A stretch of 64,000 nt of DNA from Candidatus Accumulibacter sp. ACC003 (lineage in GTDB: Bacteria; Pseudomonadota; Gammaproteobacteria; Burkholderiales; Rhodocyclaceae): assembly GCF_907163085.1 (NCBI RefSeq), contig NZ_CAJQTX010000011.1, positions 327,599-391,598 of the forward strand. The letters run 5' to 3'. Made by a program: the position numbers and the translations under genes. Below the pieces are notes generated by a model. The model did not search any database, was not told the origin of the DNA, and worked only from the letters and a program-made list of their open reading frames with translations. The first letter of the stretch is position 1. Each line of letters begins with the position of its first letter. Positions 18,725-42,833 of this stretch are shown one piece after another.

Positions 18725-18951
18725 ACGGCGTGTGGCTCTGTAAACGCGCGCGCCGGCCGCAGCAAGCCGGCGCGCGAGCGTCGAAGCCCTTACGGTGACC
18801 GTCCGACACGCCGCCTTGACTCGCGAAGCGATGACTTTAAGTCAAGATCACTGACAGCTGATTGCCGGAGGAATGAAACTCGGTCTTTGAGACTAGCCGC
18901 TGACTATCGGAGTCACGAACCTGACTCTTTGCAAGGCACGGTTGAGGTGCA

Positions 18952-19308
18952 GAGCTATGAGCTTGAGGTTCAGAGCTTCGAAGTCAAGGCTCAGAGCTTC
19001 GAAGTCAAGGCTCTGAGCTTCGAAGTCAAGGCTCTGAGCTTCGAATTCAAAGCTCAGAGCTTCGAAGTCAAGGCTCTGAGCTTCGAAGTCAAGGCTCAGA
19101 GCTTCGAAGTCAAGGCTCTGAGCTTCGAAGTCAAAGCTCTGAGCTTCGAAGTCAAAGCTCTGAGCTTCGAAGTCAAGGCTCTGAGCTTCGAAGTCAAGGC
19201 TCTGAGCTTCGAAGTCAAGGCTCTGAGCTTCGAAGTCAAGGCTCTGAGCTTCGAAGTCAAAGCTCTGAGCTTCGAAGTCAAGGCTCAGAGCTTCGAACTT
19301 GAGTCGGC
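18952..19308. repeat. 17-unit 21-bp tandem array, open on both strands
   Basis: Seventeen head-to-tail 21-base units, 15 nearly identical and one degenerate unit at each end. Each unit is GAGCTTCGAAG followed by TCAAGGCTCT; variation is confined to a few positions (A/G in AAGG, A/T at the end). The plus strand reads (FEVKALS)n and the minus strand (SLDFEAQ)n or (SKLRALT)n, with no stop through the array on either strand. TTCGAA makes every unit partly palindromic. A GGAGGAATG at 18868-18875 lies upstream but opens a five-codon frame that stops at once, so I do not call a gene. Confidence 0.9.
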
Positions 19309-19354
19309 GAGCCTCGTGCAGCCGTCTAGCCGTCATTACGTGTCGAGAGATCGC

Positions 19355-19450
19355 GAATCTTGCAAGTCGTCACCGTCCCCTTCACTGGTGCCGCGCCTTT
19401 CGGCTTGCACGCCGGAATCATTCACCGGGCAGCGAGCCGGCTGGCTGATT
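19355..19450 (+). repeat. Dispersed intergenic repeat, copy 3 (partial)
   Basis: Matches the first half of copy 2: GCAAGTCGTCACCGTCCCC, then GGCTTGCACGCCGGAATC, then TTCACCGGGCAGCGAGCCGG. The hairpin tail is missing. It sits directly upstream of the 510-aa protein gene and ends next to its probable -10 box. Confidence 0.7.
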
Positions 19451-19454
19451 TCGC

Positions 19455-19460
19455 TATAAT
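19455..19460 (+). promoter_or_regulatory. Probable -10 box (TATAAT) for the 510-aa protein gene
   Basis: A consensus TATAAT 37 bases before the ATG at 19498. No good -35 lies at the correct distance. Its position argues against a longer protein starting at 19360. Confidence 0.45.
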
Positions 19461-19497
19461 CGATTGCCAGGAATCACCAAACTACTATCGGACTGGT

Positions 19498-21030
19498 ATG
19501 GGCACTTCGACTTCTCTCGTCGCAGATCACTACTGCGTCAGCCATATTTCCGCGGCAACGATTCCCGGCTCGCGCCTGAGCACTATCCTCGCGCGCATGC
19601 ATCAGGGGCACCCACTAACGAAATTCGCGCTGGACTTCCTGCGGGAGCAGGGTCTTCCCGGCCTTTTGCGACTGGCCTGCGGCGAGATCACCCACGAGGC
19701 TTACCTCGCTGAGCTCGACGCCGACTGTTTGAAAGAAAACCAGGCCGCGAAGGCGGCGCATCAAGCCAGGGAAGCCGAGGCGCAGGCACGTGAAGCCCAC
19801 TACCTTCCCCGCAGGACCGACTACCTGGCTCGCAGGAGCAAGTATCTGGCCGCCAAGGTGGCCTCAGAAGCGGAGTGGGAAGCTTCGCGCCCGCTCCGGC
19901 GCCAGCGCGAGCGGGAGGCCAGTGAAGCCGTTCTTAAGGCGCAAAGGGCTCGCCAGGCCGAATGGAAAGCACAGCGTGAATGCAATTCCAGACTGGCCGC
20001 CGCCGCTTACCAGGCGCGTGCGATGACTGCCGATTACGCCGCGCCGACTGCCGACGAGATCGCTCGTCACTTCCAGCTGAGCCACATTTCCGGTGTGCTT
20101 TGTCCACCCATGAGCGACATTCTGGACGCTCTCTTCGAGGGCCGACCGCTAAGCGATGATCAACTCAGCGAGCTCAAGAACAAGGCACCCGACGAGCTTT
20201 ACCGGCTCGCGTTTGGTCAACTGAGCTTCGACGCATACATCGGGCCAGCAAAAACCGCCGCGGCCGAGTTGGCCGCGCGCAAGCACAAAGAGGAGGCCGC
20301 CGAGGCCGCCCGCATCGCTCGCGAAAGCGACCCCGAGTACATCGCGATGATGCAGGAGCAAAGCTTGTACAGAAAATATGGGGTAGCGCTGACCGATAAG
20401 TCATTGATGCCACGAATGACCAAGCTGCTCCAACAGATCGATGGCGGTAAGCGCCTGCCCCAAGACGAGCTTGTCTGGCTCGGCACCGAAGCCAAAGATC
20501 TCTTCACGAAGCCAATTCGGGACGCTTACCATCTTCTCGAAGCAGAATTCCATGCCGACCAGTATCGCCGTAGCGGCGATCCCTGGCAGGTCGTCAACGC
20601 CAGCGGGCACTACCGGAAGTGCAAGCGCCCAGAGACCGCGCTCGAACTGCTTGAGAGCCTTGCACTTGATCGCCTAAAGCAGCCAAAGCTTCGCTCCGCC
20701 GTGCTCACCACTCACGGTGGGGTGATGCGCGACCTCAATCGACGGCCCGAAGCGATTCAGATGGGTGAGACGGCGCACTCCCTGATGCCTCGCGATTATC
20801 GCCCGTGCACTTTGCTTGGCGCCGTGCACATGGAGCAAGGCGACTTTGAACGTGGTCACGCATGGTATGAAAAAGCGCGAGAGCGCGGCGCAACCGAAAA
20901 GAGCATCGATTCAGAACTGCGAAGCATCTATCACCGGCTGGATGCGGATGGCCGCGAGGCCATGAAGCGCTTTTTGCTGGCCGAAGATCCGCATCGATAT
21001 GGTTGGTTAAACACGACGCGAAAAGAATAG
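19498..21030 (+). CDS. Unknown 510-aa protein with three copies of a ~65-residue domain and a TPR-like C-terminus
   Basis: Not recognised. The ATG at 19498 follows a TATAAT and avoids coding through the repeat element. I see three related segments at residues ~10-75 (HYCVSHISAATIPGSRLSTI ... HQGHPLTKFALDFL ... CGEITHEAYL), ~185-250 (HFQLSHISGVLCPPMSDILD ... EGRPLSDDQL ... GQLSFDAYI) and ~290-350 (YRKYGVALTDKSLMPRMTKL ... GGKRLPQDELVWL). Long Arg/Ala/Glu coiled-coil linkers join the first two. Residues ~365-470 look like TPR helices (HYRKCKRPETALELLESLAL; MEQGDFERGHAWYEKARERG). It is 121 bases upstream of the SIR2-STAND gene in the same direction, so a functional link is plausible but not shown. 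Confidence 0.75.
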   Translation: MGTSTSLVADHYCVSHISAATIPGSRLSTILARMHQGHPLTKFALDFLREQGLPGLLRLACGEITHEAYLAELDADCLKENQAAKAAHQAREAEAQAREAHYLPRRTDYLARRSKYLAAKVASEAEWEASRPLRRQREREASEAVLKAQRARQAEWKAQRECNSRLAAAAYQARAMTADYAAPTADEIARHFQLSHISGVLCPPMSDILDALFEGRPLSDDQLSELKNKAPDELYRLAFGQLSFDAYIGPAKTAAAELAARKHKEEAAEAARIARESDPEYIAMMQEQSLYRKYGVALTDKSLMPRMTKLLQQIDGGKRLPQDELVWLGTEAKDLFTKPIRDAYHLLEAEFHADQYRRSGDPWQVVNASGHYRKCKRPETALELLESLALDRLKQPKLRSAVLTTHGGVMRDLNRRPEAIQMGETAHSLMPRDYRPCTLLGAVHMEQGDFERGHAWYEKARERGATEKSIDSELRSIYHRLDADGREAMKRFLLAEDPHRYGWLNTTRKE

Positions 21031-21151
21031 GGCTCAGACCATAATAACAGCGCCGACAACCCTGGTTTTCTCCTGGTTGCGTGGCGTTCCCGCTTGCGCA
21101 CACCGGATTGCGAGAAACGGTACAATCGAACATCATCTATGAAAGTCCGCT

Positions 21152-23596
21152 ATGCCTATCGAGTTATCCCGTCTCGCTTCCGAGATCGACCCAGCTCAAA
21201 CCGTCCTGTTCTTCGGTGCAGGTGCGAGCATTCCGTCTGGCGCGCCGTCCGTCGAAAAACTTATCAGCGTGCTTGAGGCCTTACTAGGCGAGCAATGTGA
21301 TGGCTACACGCTTCGTGAATTTACTGGAATTCTAGAAGACAAATACTCGCGGAGGCAACTCATTGAAGCCTTGCGCAAACCATTTGGGTCCCTCCGGCCC
21401 ACAGGGAGCCTACTTAACCTTCCTTTATACAAGTGGAAGGCGATTTACACGACGAACTACGAAACGCTGATTGAGCAATGCTACAAAAAGTCCGAGGCCC
21501 CGTTGGAGGTTTATGAGTCGAATTTTGACTTTACTGTCCACGGACATCCTGATGCCGTCAAGCTTTTCAAGTTGCACGGCTCAATCAATAAGGACGTTTG
21601 CGACGGGAATGCTGCTCGCATTGTTCTTACAGATAACGACTATGATCATACTCAAACGTTTCGAGAAACTCTTTATGACCGTTTACGTGCCGACGTAAGC
21701 AGCGCTAACCTAGTAGTCATCGGGCATTCTCTAGCGGATGAGCATATTCGCGAAATCGCCAATCGTGCAGCAGAAATTGCCGGCAAGGCAGGTGGTATCA
21801 GCCGAATTACACTCCTCATGTATACGCACGATGCCAATCGCGCAACGCTCTGGGAAAAGCGGGGTATTCGTGTTTGCTTCGGCGGCCTCGACGAGTTCTT
21901 CGCAGCCATCGCAAGCAAGCTGCCGGCAACGTTTCCTGTGTATAGCGCAACAGGGCATCTGTTCGATCATCGCCCGGGATTGTGGCCAGTAACCATCGAT
22001 GTGGCCCACGCCGTCTGTTGTGAGAGCAATTCGGCAAGGATGTTTAATGGCTGGCCAGCGACTTACGCCGACATTCACGCGGGGCTAACGTTCAGCCGGA
22101 ACGTCGTTCCAGAAATCGTAAAATTTCTTGATGGTGGACAGCTATGCGTCGTTATCCTCGGCGCAGGTGGTATGGGGAAGACTACTGCTGCTCGCCAGGC
22201 ACTACTGAGCTTGAGAGAGCGGGGTCATTTCGGCTGGGAGCACAAGAACGATTTCCAGCTGCAGGTAAATGACTGGATCTCAGTTGCCCAAGCGATGCGC
22301 TCCCAGGATGCCAAGGGCGTGTTATTCATCGACGATGCGCATTCTCACCTCCATGAGATCAGTCAGTTACTCGACGCTCTTTACGCCGAGCGGCTCGGCA
22401 CGCTGAGGCTCGTTCTTGCCACTAGCCGTAACCATTGGAACCCACGTGTCAAGTCAGTTGTTGTTCATAGAGCCGGTCGCGAATTCGGCATGGGACGCCT
22501 GCGACCGGCGGAGATCGATGGGTTGCTCAACCTCGTTGAGTCTAACCCGTGTGTGCGGGCGCTAGTCGGCGACGATTTCAGTGGCTTCTCGCGCTTCGAG
22601 AAACGCAGGCGACTAACAGTGCGCTGCGAGTCCGAGACTTTCGTATGCATGAAAAATATATTTTCAACCGAAAAATTTGATGACATCATATTGCGCGAGT
22701 ATGCTGCACTCCGTCCCGAGCTTCAAGAGATATATCGCTTCGTGGCCGCCATGGAGAGTTCTGGCATCCGTGTACACCGCCAACTCGTGATCCGCCTGCT
22801 TGGCATACCTGTGATGAGTATTGCCGCGATACTCGATAACCTTACCGATATTGTCAGTGAGTATCCTATCGACCCGCGAGAGGGAATTTATGGTTGGCGC
22901 GGCCGCCACAACGTCATCGTCGGGATCCTGACGCGCTACAAGTTCCACGACACTGGTCAGATCATCGAGCTTTTTGATAAGGTTATCGACTCGATATCGC
23001 CAACCTACGACATAGAAGTGCGAACTATTCGGGAAATGTGTAACCTCGAGACCGGTCTATCGCGAATTCAGGACAAGGGAATGCAGAATCGGCTGCTACG
23101 CAAGATGATCTCAATTGCACCCGGCGAGCGCGTTCCTCGTCATCGCCTGATCCGCAATATGATCGAAATGGGTGAGTTTGAGAAATCGGACGCGGAAATC
23201 CGCATCTACGAAAAGGACTTCCGCCGCGACCACACGATTGCGCGCTACAGGATAAAGCTCCTAATGTGCCGAGCGATCTACACACCTGGTATCCTGCTTG
23301 AGGATCGTGTCGCCATACTCAACCAAGCCAAGGATGCCGCCCTTCAGAGTATATCGCGAATCCAGAACCAGAACCACAGGCACCTACTTGCCGCCTATTG
23401 TGAGATAGGGATCGAGATGCACCGACTTACTAGTAAATACAGCATCTACGACGACGCCATGAAGCTTCTGAAGGCGTCAGAGGCCGAGATTGGCGACCCA
23501 GAGATTAGTAGGACAATACGGCACTATGAACGGAGAATGGCTGGGCAGCCGGATGAAACAGAGCATGATTCCACACCCGAGCTCACTTACCCTTGA
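21152..23596 (+). CDS. SIR2 domain-STAND NTPase protein, candidate anti-phage NADase
   Basis: 814 aa. Residues 1-270 form a SIR2-like NAD-consuming domain: FFGAGAS (20-26), TTNYE with N102 (100-104), KLHGS with H142 (140-144) and a GHSLAD motif. Asn and His are the residues used for NAD cleavage in ThsA-like proteins. A P-loop NTPase follows: Walker A GAGGMGKTT (337-345) and Walker B VLFIDDAH with D394-D395, then LATSR as a sensor. The C-terminal ~270 residues are helical, probably the ligand-sensing part. SIR2-STAND proteins (Avs5-like and relatives) abort phage infection by depleting NAD; I infer that role here. It is less GC-rich than flanking chromosomal genes. Confidence 0.88.
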   Translation: MPIELSRLASEIDPAQTVLFFGAGASIPSGAPSVEKLISVLEALLGEQCDGYTLREFTGILEDKYSRRQLIEALRKPFGSLRPTGSLLNLPLYKWKAIYTTNYETLIEQCYKKSEAPLEVYESNFDFTVHGHPDAVKLFKLHGSINKDVCDGNAARIVLTDNDYDHTQTFRETLYDRLRADVSSANLVVIGHSLADEHIREIANRAAEIAGKAGGISRITLLMYTHDANRATLWEKRGIRVCFGGLDEFFAAIASKLPATFPVYSATGHLFDHRPGLWPVTIDVAHAVCCESNSARMFNGWPATYADIHAGLTFSRNVVPEIVKFLDGGQLCVVILGAGGMGKTTAARQALLSLRERGHFGWEHKNDFQLQVNDWISVAQAMRSQDAKGVLFIDDAHSHLHEISQLLDALYAERLGTLRLVLATSRNHWNPRVKSVVVHRAGREFGMGRLRPAEIDGLLNLVESNPCVRALVGDDFSGFSRFEKRRRLTVRCESETFVCMKNIFSTEKFDDIILREYAALRPELQEIYRFVAAMESSGIRVHRQLVIRLLGIPVMSIAAILDNLTDIVSEYPIDPREGIYGWRGRHNVIVGILTRYKFHDTGQIIELFDKVIDSISPTYDIEVRTIREMCNLETGLSRIQDKGMQNRLLRKMISIAPGERVPRHRLIRNMIEMGEFEKSDAEIRIYEKDFRRDHTIARYRIKLLMCRAIYTPGILLEDRVAILNQAKDAALQSISRIQNQNHRHLLAAYCEIGIEMHRLTSKYSIYDDAMKLLKASEAEIGDPEISRTIRHYERRMAGQPDETEHDSTPELTYP

Positions 23597-24630: not shown

Positions 24631-25530
24631 TCACGGGCGCACCGCATCTCTCAACGCGGCACCAATTCTCGCGATGGCCTGATTGCTCGCTTGCATGGAC
24701 GCGCTGGTTTGCGTGACGTAGATGCCAACAACCAGCGCTTGCTTTGATGGCGGCCAGATCACGGCGACTATCGAGCGAGAGCCGTAGCCACCAGCGCCTG
24801 TTTTGTCGGCAATTTTCCAGTCGGCTGGCAGTGCGGCGCGCAACAAGGCGTCGGCGACTTGGTCGTCGAGCATCCATTGTTTCAGTTCAGCTCTGGAGCG
24901 AGCCGACAAGGCGTCGCCAAGAAGAATTTTTCGTAAGCTTTCGACGATAGCGTCGGGCGTGGTGGTGTCGTGTTCGTCGCCCGGCCTTGCTTCGTTCAAG
25001 TCGGGCTCGTGGTGATCAATCCGGGTTTTTTTATCGCCGATCGATCGCATGTAGGCGGTGAATCCGCTCGTCCCACCAATGGCATCCAGGACGACGTTGG
25101 CTGCGGTGTTGTCGCTATAACTTACCGCAGCATGGCAAAGCTCGCGCAATGTCATGGTTTTGGGGGCCAGCGATTTCTCGGTGATTGGCGAATACGTGAC
25201 CAGCATCTGCTTGCGAATCGATACGGTTTGATCGAGTGCGATAGACTCTCGATCCACCTTCGCCAGAAATGCGGCGCAACTGAATGCCTTGTGGGTGCTA
25301 TTCAGCGGAAAGCGCTCGTTGCCCCGGTATTGCCAGGTCTCGCCGGTATTGGCGTCGAACACGGCCATGCCTACTCTGGCTTGCAAGAGTTTCTCTTCAG
25401 CCTGCACCGCTTCGGTCAGCTTTGCGGTGTCGAGTGCGGACGCTGCAGTAGCAAAAGAAGACGCACAAACACATGCAAGCGCGATGAGCACGATACGATG
25501 AGTCTTGGTATTCAAGTCTACGTTCTCCAT
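24631..25530 (-). CDS. Class A beta-lactamase (CARB/PSE-like)
   Basis: 299 aa, periplasmic serine beta-lactamase. The signal peptide is THRIVLIALACVCASSFATA. Catalytic elements are complete: S78-T-H-K81 (Ambler S70xxK73), S139-D-N (S130DN), E175 in HEPDLNEA (E166 loop) and K243-T-G (KTG). Similarity to carbenicillinases shows in VTYSPITEK, SDNTAANVVLDAIGG, DTTTPDAI and ADKTGAGGYGSRSI. The ATG at 25530 gives MENVDL; a TTG at 25515 lies 9 bases after GGAG and may be the true start. No ampR-like regulator is adjacent. It lies at the edge of a low-GC island, consistent with acquisition. Spectrum cannot be deduced. Confidence 0.9.
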   Translation of the reverse strand: MENVDLNTKTHRIVLIALACVCASSFATAASALDTAKLTEAVQAEEKLLQARVGMAVFDANTGETWQYRGNERFPLNSTHKAFSCAAFLAKVDRESIALDQTVSIRKQMLVTYSPITEKSLAPKTMTLRELCHAAVSYSDNTAANVVLDAIGGTSGFTAYMRSIGDKKTRIDHHEPDLNEARPGDEHDTTTPDAIVESLRKILLGDALSARSRAELKQWMLDDQVADALLRAALPADWKIADKTGAGGYGSRSIVAVIWPPSKQALVVGIYVTQTSASMQASNQAIARIGAALRDAVRP

Positions 25531-28215
<2,685 letters not shown>

Positions 28216-41715: not shown

Positions 41716-42833
41716 CAACTACTAATATACGATATGACTAATCCAGCCATTTTGGGCGCGAACTCCCCCTATCCCCGTGCTACTTCATGCGGCAGGCGCA
41801 ATTTGCCCAACCCCGACGGATTGCGGCATGCCCAGATAGGTGAAGGTGTTGATGATGGCGGCGCGGACGTGCGCTTCGGTCACTTGCCGCTCGAAGGTTC
41901 GAGAGTACAGGCTGTCGCCCAACTGCTTCAGCCGGTACATCATGTTTTCGGCAATGCTGCGCCGGTGATAGTCGCTATCGTTCTTCCAGCCGGCGCTGCC
42001 CTTGGCGGCGATCTCTTCGAGAATGCCGTCACGGGGATGATCGTCGCCCCAGGGAACCGCGCCGTCCCGCGGGGGAATGGTGGCACGGGCGTCGCGGTCG
42101 GCAATGGCGGCATGGCAGCCTTTGGTGTCGTAGGCGCCATCGGCGGACACTTGAGAGACTTCGCCTTCGACCTGGTCAAGCAACCCGGAGAACACTTCGC
42201 TGTCGCCCCAATCGGCCGTCGTCACTTCAATGCCGATGATGTCCTTGGTGGTCTCGTCGACGGCCAAGTGGATCTTCCGCCAGGTGCGGCGCTTACCGAC
42301 TCCGTGCTGACGGACTTTCCATTCGCCTTCGCCGAAGATCTTCAGGCCGGTCGAGTCCACCACCACATGCGTTGGCCCTTTGCGCGGCCGACGCGGAATT
42401 TTCACCGAGATCTCACCCGCGCGCCGGGACATGTGGGTGTGGTCCGGTACGGGAAGGTCCAGTTGACTCAAGCGCATCAGCGACTTCACCAGTCCTTCCG
42501 TGGCGCGGTACGGCAACTGGAACAGCGCCTTGATCGTCAGACAGGTCTGGATGGCCGTCTCCGAGTACAGCCCGGGCTTGCCCCGACCGACCGGCGGTGG
42601 CGGTGTCCAGTTGTCTTTGATACTGGCGACGTCCAGCCAGATCGTCAGGTTGCCCCGGTTGACCAGCGAACGGTCGTACTCCGACCAGTTCGTCACCCGA
42701 TACCGCTGCTTCGACGTCGCCTCGCCAGTGTCTGGCCTGACCCTCGCTGCCATCCGAGCTCTCCTCTATCGCCGCTGAGCCCCGACTCTGGGGCGCATGC
42801 CATTATACTGCGCCAACGCCCAACGTCGACGGT
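41716..42833 (-). mobile_element. IS5-family insertion sequence inside the CheC-like gene
   Basis: About 1.1 kb inserted between codons TAT (41710) and TTC/ATG (42834-42839) of the host gene, carrying one full-length transposase on the minus strand. I could not identify terminal inverted repeats or a target duplication by eye, so the exact ends are uncertain by several bases. A perfect palindrome (TATTAG, CAACTA, CTAATA) sits at the left junction, 41710-41727. Confidence 0.8.
41785..42753 (-). CDS. IS5-family DDE transposase
   Basis: 322 aa, complete. The N-terminal part has the subgroup signature NWSEYDRSLVNRGNLTIWLD. The catalytic triad is visible: Asp in HVVVDSTGLKIFGEGEW, Asp in QVSADGAYDTKG, and Glu in YHRRSIAENMMYRLKQLGDS. 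There is no frameshift or internal stop, so the element may still be active. Confidence 0.93.
   Translation of the reverse strand: MAARVRPDTGEATSKQRYRVTNWSEYDRSLVNRGNLTIWLDVASIKDNWTPPPPVGRGKPGLYSETAIQTCLTIKALFQLPYRATEGLVKSLMRLSQLDLPVPDHTHMSRRAGEISVKIPRRPRKGPTHVVVDSTGLKIFGEGEWKVRQHGVGKRRTWRKIHLAVDETTKDIIGIEVTTADWGDSEVFSGLLDQVEGEVSQVSADGAYDTKGCHAAIADRDARATIPPRDGAVPWGDDHPRDGILEEIAAKGSAGWKNDSDYHRRSIAENMMYRLKQLGDSLYSRTFERQVTEAHVRAAIINTFTYLGMPQSVGVGQIAPAA

What the first reader, a model, noticed from the sequence alone, without database searches (positions are those of the whole stretch)
21152..23596. SIR2-STAND protein as candidate anti-phage NADase
N-terminal SIR2 motifs (FFGAGAS, TTNYE, KLHGS) with catalytic Asn102/His142, then a complete Walker A/B NTPase and a helical C-terminus. 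This layout is that of STAND immune proteins that deplete NAD on phage sensing (Avs5-like). It lies in a lower-GC island with other unknown genes. Sequence shows the domains; defence activity is inference.
Basis: partly seen in the sequence, partly recalled or inferred. Interest (0 to 1): 0.75.

Follow-up and report, generated by a model that had tools for sequence, protein, structure and literature searches.

The report
SIR2-STAND immune receptor, compact family
The gene encodes a bacterial immune-receptor-like protein that probably destroys the cell's NAD+ when it senses an invader; it belongs to a compact, scattered family related to the anti-phage protein Avs5 and, on the evidence so far, distinct from it.

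Summary
In detail: 21152-23596 (+) is an intact 814-aa gene with a SIR2_2 domain, a STAND NTPase, a probable winged helix and a helical C-terminus; N102, H142, K343 and D394 are kept in every one of 28 aligned sequences that has the position. The nearest whole-length solved folds are EfAvs5 and human SAMD9, and residues replaced in KomC mutant structures align with N102 and H142. But the NTPase passes Pfam's nSTAND5 cut-off, not nSTAND3 as printed for Avs5, and PADLOC's Avs5 model does not hit it (no positive control; no Avs5 sequence was in our tree). Close relatives (45-54% identity, ~800 aa) occur in 28 of 30 named loci from several phyla, also on plasmids and an IMG/VR contig, without a recurring partner gene. 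At least 7 of 31 loci have restriction or other defence genes within 5 kb. In a sister genome the same slot holds an Mrr-nSTAND3 gene. Unusually, residues 534-700, behind the NTPase, are more conserved than the SIR2 domain, while longer relatives end in a fast-evolving TPR/OB region. Best reading: a STAND-gated NADase of anti-phage or anti-mobile-element immunity, in a compact SIR2-nSTAND5 family. Activity untested.

The parts
21152..23596 (+). SIR2-STAND gene, 814 aa
   Evidence: aligned with 27 relatives
21152..21928 (+). SIR2-like (SIR2_2) effector domain, residues 1-259
21455..21457 (+). N102, predicted catalytic Asn
   Evidence: 27 of 27 rows; aligns with the Asn replaced by Ala in the KomBC mutant chain 9v12
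21575..21577 (+). H142, predicted catalytic His
   Evidence: 28 of 28 rows; aligns with the His replaced in 9v12 and in KomC H146N, 9xvc
22040..22447 (+). STAND NTPase core, residues 297-432
   Evidence: PF25199 64.4 bits, residues 298-432
22160..22186 (+). Walker A GAGGMGKTT, residues 337-345
   Evidence: G337, G340, G342, K343 in 28 of 28 rows
22322..22336 (+). Walker B LFIDD, residues 391-395
   Evidence: D394 in 28 of 28 rows
22715..22903 (+). Probable winged-helix domain, residues 522-584
   Evidence: three helices then two strands in the model; label inferred
22910..23542 (+). Helical C-terminal region, residues 587-797, presumed sensor
   Evidence: row of helices in the model; the profile of residues 440-800 finds no PDB sequence below E 0.1
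18840..21051 (+). Shared block upstream: 21-bp repeats (18966-19297) and a 556-aa gene (19360-21030); the match to a sister genome ends here
   Evidence: 86% DNA identity to G022 over 19197-21051 and 80% over 18840-19066; in G022 an Mrr_cat-nSTAND3 gene follows

Best explanation
A single-gene immune receptor. The C-terminal helical region is thought to sense an invader-related signal; the STAND NTPase then exchanges ADP for ATP and oligomerises, and the SIR2 domains in the assembly hydrolyse NAD+, stopping infection at the cost of the cell's growth. Shown here: domain order, conserved active-site and NTPase residues, whole-length fold similarity to EfAvs5 and SAMD9, scattered occurrence, defence or mobile neighbours in part of the loci, no recurring partner gene in the flanks held. 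Inferred: NADase activity, oligomerisation, trigger, anti-phage or anti-mobile-element role. I treat it as a compact SIR2-nSTAND5 family of its own; that it lies outside Avs5 rests on profile scores, not on a tree.
For: Pfam SIR2_2 and nSTAND_NTPase5 over cut-off, both matched by 28 of 28 rows at E<=0.01. The SIR2 part aligns with KomC, ThsA and DSR2; PADLOC's best models for it are ThsA (E 3.7e-18, SIR2 part). No CxxC pair in the first 260 residues of 28 of 28 rows (one row starts at 137), so the zinc ribbon of sirtuin deacetylases (recalled) is absent. Foldseek: EfAvs5 9jap E 1.5e-19, AVAST5 filament 9nc9 1.9e-16. Relatives: 30 loci, plasmid copies, IMG/VR contig; the tree does not group by phylum. 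8 of 20 singly scanned neighbours, in 7 of 31 loci and within 5 kb, match defence models. Sister genome G022 has an Mrr_cat-nSTAND3 gene in the same slot. In print the Avs5 SIR2 domain hydrolyses NAD+ on infection and N110A is the inactive control (PMC12931631, parts 1-2 and passages).
Against: 7 of 7 scanned neighbours in the window match no PADLOC model, and 12 of the 20 singly scanned neighbours of relatives match none. Several relatives sit beside ordinary genes, e.g. ribonucleotide reductase or glutathione synthetase. Random control ORFs also hit some defence models (16 families, among them DrmC, MzaA and TIR models). Part of the presumed sensor is more conserved than the effector, unlike a typical arms-race sensor. 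No experiment.
Confidence: 0.72

Rival explanations
1. It is a divergent Avs5 (AVAST type 5), recognising phage proteins through its C-terminal repeats as Pseudomonas Avs5 does.
For: Top Foldseek hit EfAvs5; profile match to 9jap over SIR2, NTPase and the part behind it; 24 of 28 rows also match nSTAND3 at E<=0.01.
Against: Window protein 25.0 bits to nSTAND3 against a cut-off of 27.2, but 64.4 to nSTAND5; the PADLOC Avs5 model does not hit it at E<=0.1 and hits relative L022 only weakly over the SIR2 part; the C-terminal profile finds no PDB relative. The paper's homologue table was not seen and no Avs5 sequence could be put in a tree.
Confidence: 0.2
2. A guard-type receptor: it watches a conserved host process or a universal by-product of infection rather than a variable phage protein, so its sensor is under purifying selection. 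(This can be true together with the best explanation.)
For: Mean pair identity 0.578 for 534-700 and 0.560 for 433-533 against 0.477 for SIR2 (433-700 against SIR2: 2 of 10000 permutations as high). In five longer relatives the TPR and OB ends are the most variable parts (22% against 33% for SIR2), and the stretch taken as equal to 534-700 is at 31.5%.
Against: In the longer relatives the stretch next to the NTPase is also the most conserved (37.7%), so conservation of 433-533 is not special; 534-584 includes the winged helix and may be kept for autoinhibition; 701-798 is at 0.428; the scan used two exact 7-mers, one at 507-513.
Confidence: 0.25
3. A stabilisation module of mobile elements, or a host stress or signalling NADase, not immunity.
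For: Copies on plasmids and beside recombinases.
Against: No partner gene recurs in the 32 loci compared, flanks as held; closest solved whole-length folds are immune proteins.
Confidence: 0.1

Closest known systems
Avs5 (AVAST type 5; EfAvs5 9jap, AVAST5 filament 9nc9; PaAvs5, PMC12931631)
   Same: SIR2_2 effector, STAND NTPase, helical C-terminus; top whole-length Foldseek hit
   Different: NTPase over the cut-off for nSTAND5 rather than nSTAND3; no PADLOC Avs5 hit; a conserved stretch behind the NTPase, where the paper reports poor conservation for Avs5
SIR2-nSTAND5 long form (about 1050 aa, e.g. WP_068039562, WP_125320575)
   Same: SIR2_2 and nSTAND5 over cut-off in 5 of 5; profile-profile match over 700 columns, E 7.6e-48
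   Different: Long form carries further TPR and a cold-shock-like (OB) end: Pfam CSD below cut-off in 2 of 5, PDB cold-shock domains found by its profile; these lie beyond the aligned part. Tree branch to the compact form 4.38 changes per column, SH-aLRT 100
SAMD9 (human antiviral STAND-like protein)
   Different: No AlbA_2 or OB match in the window protein; Walker A lysine present, against GGT/S in SAMD9 (PMC5445408, parts 1-2 read); not found by the sequence profile
DSR2, ThsA (Thoeris), KomC
   Same: SIR2 domain of the NADase type
   Different: No STALD match and no TIR match in the window protein and the 8 other proteins; DSR2 model 16.6 bits against cut-off 1400

Membership tests
Avs5 (AVAST type 5) | N-terminal SIR2_2 effector with catalytic Asn and His | tested here: met
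Avs5 (AVAST type 5) | nSTAND3 (PF20720) as the NTPase, as reported in PMC12931631 | tested here: not met
   25.0 bits, cut-off 27.2, in the window protein; nSTAND5 64.4. In the family 24 of 28 match nSTAND3 at E<=0.01 (best 1.3e-8), so the boundary is soft
Avs5 (AVAST type 5) | Match to PADLOC Avs5 model PDLC02170 | tested here: inconclusive
   No hit at E<=0.1; L022 2.8e-6, best stretch in the SIR2 part; no positive control: 0 of 369 genomes at E<=1e-20, 0 of 359 at 1e-15, 0 of 14 controls
Avs5 (AVAST type 5) | Whole-length fold as in solved Avs5 | tested here: met
Avs5 (AVAST type 5) | Falls into one of the published Avs5 clades | not tested
   no Avs5 sequences could be obtained for a tree
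Avs5 (AVAST type 5) | Phage-triggered NAD+ hydrolysis | not testable with these tools
   needs an assay
Pfam nSTAND_NTPase5 (PF25199) | score over the curated cut-off | tested here: met
   64.4 against 34
SAMD9 family | AlbA_2, SIR2-like, STAND-like P-loop with GGT/S, TPR, OB | tested here: not met
   No AlbA_2 or OB Pfam match at E<=1, Walker A is GKT; the fold from SIR2-like to repeats matches
DSR2 | NCBIfam equivalog NF041819 over cut-off | tested here: not met
   16.6 against 1400
Thoeris ThsA | SIR2 followed by SLOG (STALD) domain | tested here: not met
   No STALD match at E<=1 in the window protein; ThsA control L061 matches STALD at 176.8 bits

The most novel reading that the evidence does not exclude
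A widely transferred family of compact SIR2-nSTAND5 receptors that lacks the fast-evolving TPR/OB sensor of its longer, SAMD9-like relatives and keeps a strongly conserved C-terminal stretch, so that it reads an invariant signal (a guarded host state or a universal infection product) and fires NAD+ depletion: a bacterial guard-type STAND with a core shared with SAMD9.
Probability: 0.22. Interest if true: 0.75.

Novelty: new variant of a known kind. Interest (0 to 1): 0.5.

Why it matters
It adds a compact (about 800 aa) SIR2-STAND family that the 2023 PADLOC models match only in the SIR2 part or weakly in the NTPase in the three members scanned, with a conserved stretch behind the NTPase that makes the trigger question directly testable. 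The long form joins SIR2, nSTAND5, TPR and a cold-shock-like end, the core order described for SAMD9, which bears on the origin of an animal antiviral protein. The slot that holds a SIR2-nSTAND5 gene in one genome and an Mrr-nSTAND3 gene in its sister is a small natural example of exchange of STAND effectors at one site.

Tried and rejected
Full-length copies among 60 relatives (27 of the genus, 9 of the family, 24 of the order): none; weaker hits to the SIR2 part in 3. Class sample of 369 genomes at E<=1e-8: own copy and 2 SIR2-part hits in longer frames. Phage records: no match. The first viral-contig scan with the single protein found nothing; with alignment A2 one contig, L052.

A conserved partner was sought by all-against-all comparison of 556 ORFs in 32 loci; outside the family the largest cluster spans 5 loci and holds an annotated EAL-domain protein, so none was accepted. 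14 of 31 relatives' loci have less than 5 kb or so of DNA on one side, so a partner could be missed there. The 556-aa gene upstream (19360-21030) occurs without the SIR2-STAND gene in G022 and G004 and in 1 of 349 genomes of the order sample, the own one: rejected as an obligate partner.

Count of PADLOC model families near relatives against control: 104 families for 121 ORFs against 16 for 120. I do not use this as proof of enrichment: many models recognise one protein (four proteins alone account for 51 hits), 25 of the 104 families were shown, the control hosts are not matched, and hits per protein were not counted. No restriction or methylase model is among the 16 of the control. Rows dropped: 3 of the nearest 124 ORFs (two of L017, one of L032), 73 further ORFs within 5 kb, and one 4358-aa ORF of the control.

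Positive control for the PADLOC Avs5 model: not found. SAMD9 by sequence profile: not among the hits of the A4 profile at E<=10, nor among the 60 shown of 171 hits of the A5 profile at E<=1. Sirtuin-type deacetylase rejected for lack of CxxC pairs. A katG homologue also lies near the gene in L034; judged chance, as katG occurs in 21 of 28 genus genomes. Papers: 'nSTAND5' 0 papers; no paper on a SIR2-nSTAND5 family in the listings (some capped); passages of PMC8195603 and PMC10952713 gave none. Supplements could not be read.

Full report
Observation. The ORF at 21152-23596 (+) is an intact 814-aa gene, far longer than shuffled sequence gives (longest run 284 codons in 200 shuffles). Pfam finds SIR2_2 (residues 97-241, 86.8 bits) and nSTAND_NTPase5 (298-432, 64.4 bits), both over their cut-offs; nSTAND3 reaches 25.0 bits, below its cut-off of 27.2.

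Relatives. A scan of the genome-contig collection (one genome for each of 84,980 species) with two conserved 7-mers gave 30 loci, a lower bound. 27 of them match from residue 4 or earlier to 795 or later at 45-54% identity; L044 (50%) is cut by a contig end, L050 is partial, L051 is a 41-residue match. L047 and L048 are split into two frames. Plasmid copies in Pseudomonas savastanoi 1448A and Pseudomonas sp. KBS0707 (51%) are split over three annotated ORFs in both. One IMG/VR contig holds a 39% relative. In 398 genomes of a phylum sample there are two full copies, one of them the window's own, one 110-position fragment and four SIR2-part hits. Alignment A4 holds the window and 27 relatives; L047, L048, L050, L051 and the split plasmid copies were left out. 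28 of 28 rows match SIR2_2 and nSTAND_NTPase5 at E<=0.01, 24 of 28 also nSTAND3. N102 is kept in 27 of 27 rows, H142, K343 and D394 in 28 of 28. The tree does not follow phylum: Pseudomonadota rows need 5 changes against a shuffled mean of 5.5 (quick tree; titles of binned genomes can be wrong). The rows carry record titles of Nitrospira, Acidobacteria, Fimbriimonadaceae, Desulfobacteraceae, Phycisphaerales, Saccharibacteria and several proteobacterial groups.

Active site. In PDB chain 9v12 (KomBC mutant) the replaced Asn and His align with N102 and H142, and in 9xvc (KomC H146N) the replaced His aligns with H142. No CxxC pair occurs in the first 260 residues of 28 of 28 rows. This supports a NADase-type SIR2 rather than a zinc sirtuin (the latter point from general knowledge). 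PADLOC's best models are ThsA (E 3.7e-18) and other SIR2 proteins, over the SIR2 part.

A longer sister form. Five proteins of 1034-1051 aa from the plasmid collection (one cut by the stretch fetched) carry SIR2_2 and nSTAND5 over cut-off in 5 of 5, TPR_19 at E<=0.01 in 5 of 5 (over cut-off in 2), and a cold-shock match below cut-off in 2; their profile also finds cold-shock domains of known structure (E 1.3e-5 and weaker). Profile-profile comparison with A4 aligns 700 columns (E 7.6e-48). SIR2, STAND-like P-loop, TPR and a cold-shock-like OB fold is the core order described for SAMD9, whose Walker A has GGT/S instead of GKT (PMC5445408, parts 1-2 of 4 read). PMC12931631 (parts 1-2 of 13 and passages read) already notes that PaAvs5 resembles SAMD9, so that link as such is not new.

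Conservation. With four near-duplicates or neighbours in the tree left out (L035, L044, L046, L049; 24 rows), mean pair identity is 0.477 for SIR2, 0.448 for the NTPase, 0.560 for 433-533, 0.578 for 534-700 and 0.428 for 701-798; the linker 260-296 (0.277) and the tail (0.131) are variable; 433-700 exceeds SIR2 by 0.094 (2 of 10000 column permutations as high). In the long form (five sequences) SIR2 is at 33.0%, the stretch taken as equal to 433-533 at 37.7%, that taken as equal to 534-700 at 31.5%, and the TPR and OB ends at 22%. So high conservation right behind the NTPase is common to both forms, while that of 534-700, and the lack of a fast-evolving C-terminal domain, are marks of the compact family. 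Caution: the scan selected relatives with exact 7-mers at 297-303 and 507-513, which raises conservation there but not in 534-700.

Neighbourhood. No partner gene recurs in the flanks held. 20 neighbour ORFs, picked by size or motif, were scanned singly against PADLOC: 8 match, in 7 of 31 loci and 5 kb or less away: L030 Tmn, L036 type IV restriction, L043 type I restriction, L037 type I restriction and methylase, L033 type I methylase, L040 a DpdF/PsyrT-like helicase, L032 a type II methylase (distances); 12 match none. A tally over 121 of 197 ORFs within 5 kb hit 104 model families, against 16 for 120 ORFs of arbitrary stretches of ten single-contig genomes; because many models recognise one protein this overstates the contrast, and the control itself hits DrmC, MzaA and TIR models. 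Mobile context: a tyrosine recombinase next to the plasmid copies, phage integrase in 3 of 121 neighbours; integrase-like genes next to L033 and L052 and a terminase-like gene next to L046 were judged by eye. Ordinary genes flank several others.

The window's own site. 7 of 7 scanned neighbours have no PADLOC hit. The block 18840-21051 (21-bp repeats and a 556-aa gene) is 86% identical over 19197-21051 in sister genome G022, where the match ends about 100 bases before the SIR2-STAND start. There the next gene in the same orientation, 618 bases behind the 556-aa homologue, is a 750-aa protein with Mrr_cat (25.5 bits, cut-off 21) and nSTAND3 (172.2 bits), with no clear similarity to the window protein outside the Walker region. 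In G004 a cell-wall synthase (transglycosylase/transpeptidase) follows the homologue. So two different effector-STAND genes occupy one slot. To the right, DNA identity with three sister genomes resumes only at katG (26071 onward). No call names the organism.

Mechanism. Shown: domains, conserved catalytic residues, fold kinship with immune NADases, scattered distribution, defence and mobile neighbours at part of the loci. Inferred: sensing by the C-terminal region, nucleotide exchange and assembly, NAD+ hydrolysis, arrest of infected cells. I put 0.72 on a STAND-gated NADase of anti-phage or anti-mobile-element immunity. As to filing: it works like Avs5 on anatomy, but the nSTAND3 feature was tested and not met, so I file it as a compact SIR2-nSTAND5 family among SIR2-STAND proteins, a new variant of a known kind; a tree with Avs5 sequences is still owed.

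Noticed in passing
window 18966-19297: Array of about 16 copies of a 21-bp repeat, open in a frame on both strands, before and into the 556-aa gene region; sister genome G022 has a shorter, less regular 21-bp array of about 4 copies there.
   Followed up: partly
window 19360-21030: 556-aa gene of unknown function with a weak TPR match; close homologues in 2 of 27 other genus genomes (83% in G022, 57% in G004), a 32-residue match in G014, and only the own copy in 349 genomes of the order sample.
   Followed up: partly
L094:5393-7645: Mrr_cat-nSTAND3 gene in sister genome G022 in the slot of the SIR2-STAND gene; a candidate defence gene of its own.
   Followed up: partly
window 24631-25641 (-): Beta-lactamase family gene (Beta-lactamase2, E 3.2e-47) at the right side of the low-GC stretch.
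   Followed up: no
window 41785-42753 (-): IS5-like transposase, named by eye from the translation, in a second GC dip at 40-44 kb.
   Followed up: no
G000:C1:112203-112586 (L002): A second, weak SIR2-part relative in the same genome (33% over residues 80-206, open frame 336 aa).
   Followed up: no
L018, L019, L020, L021, L060: Long SIR2-nSTAND5-TPR proteins of about 1050 aa in the plasmid collection, two with a weak cold-shock match at the end; resembles the SAMD9 core order.
   Followed up: partly
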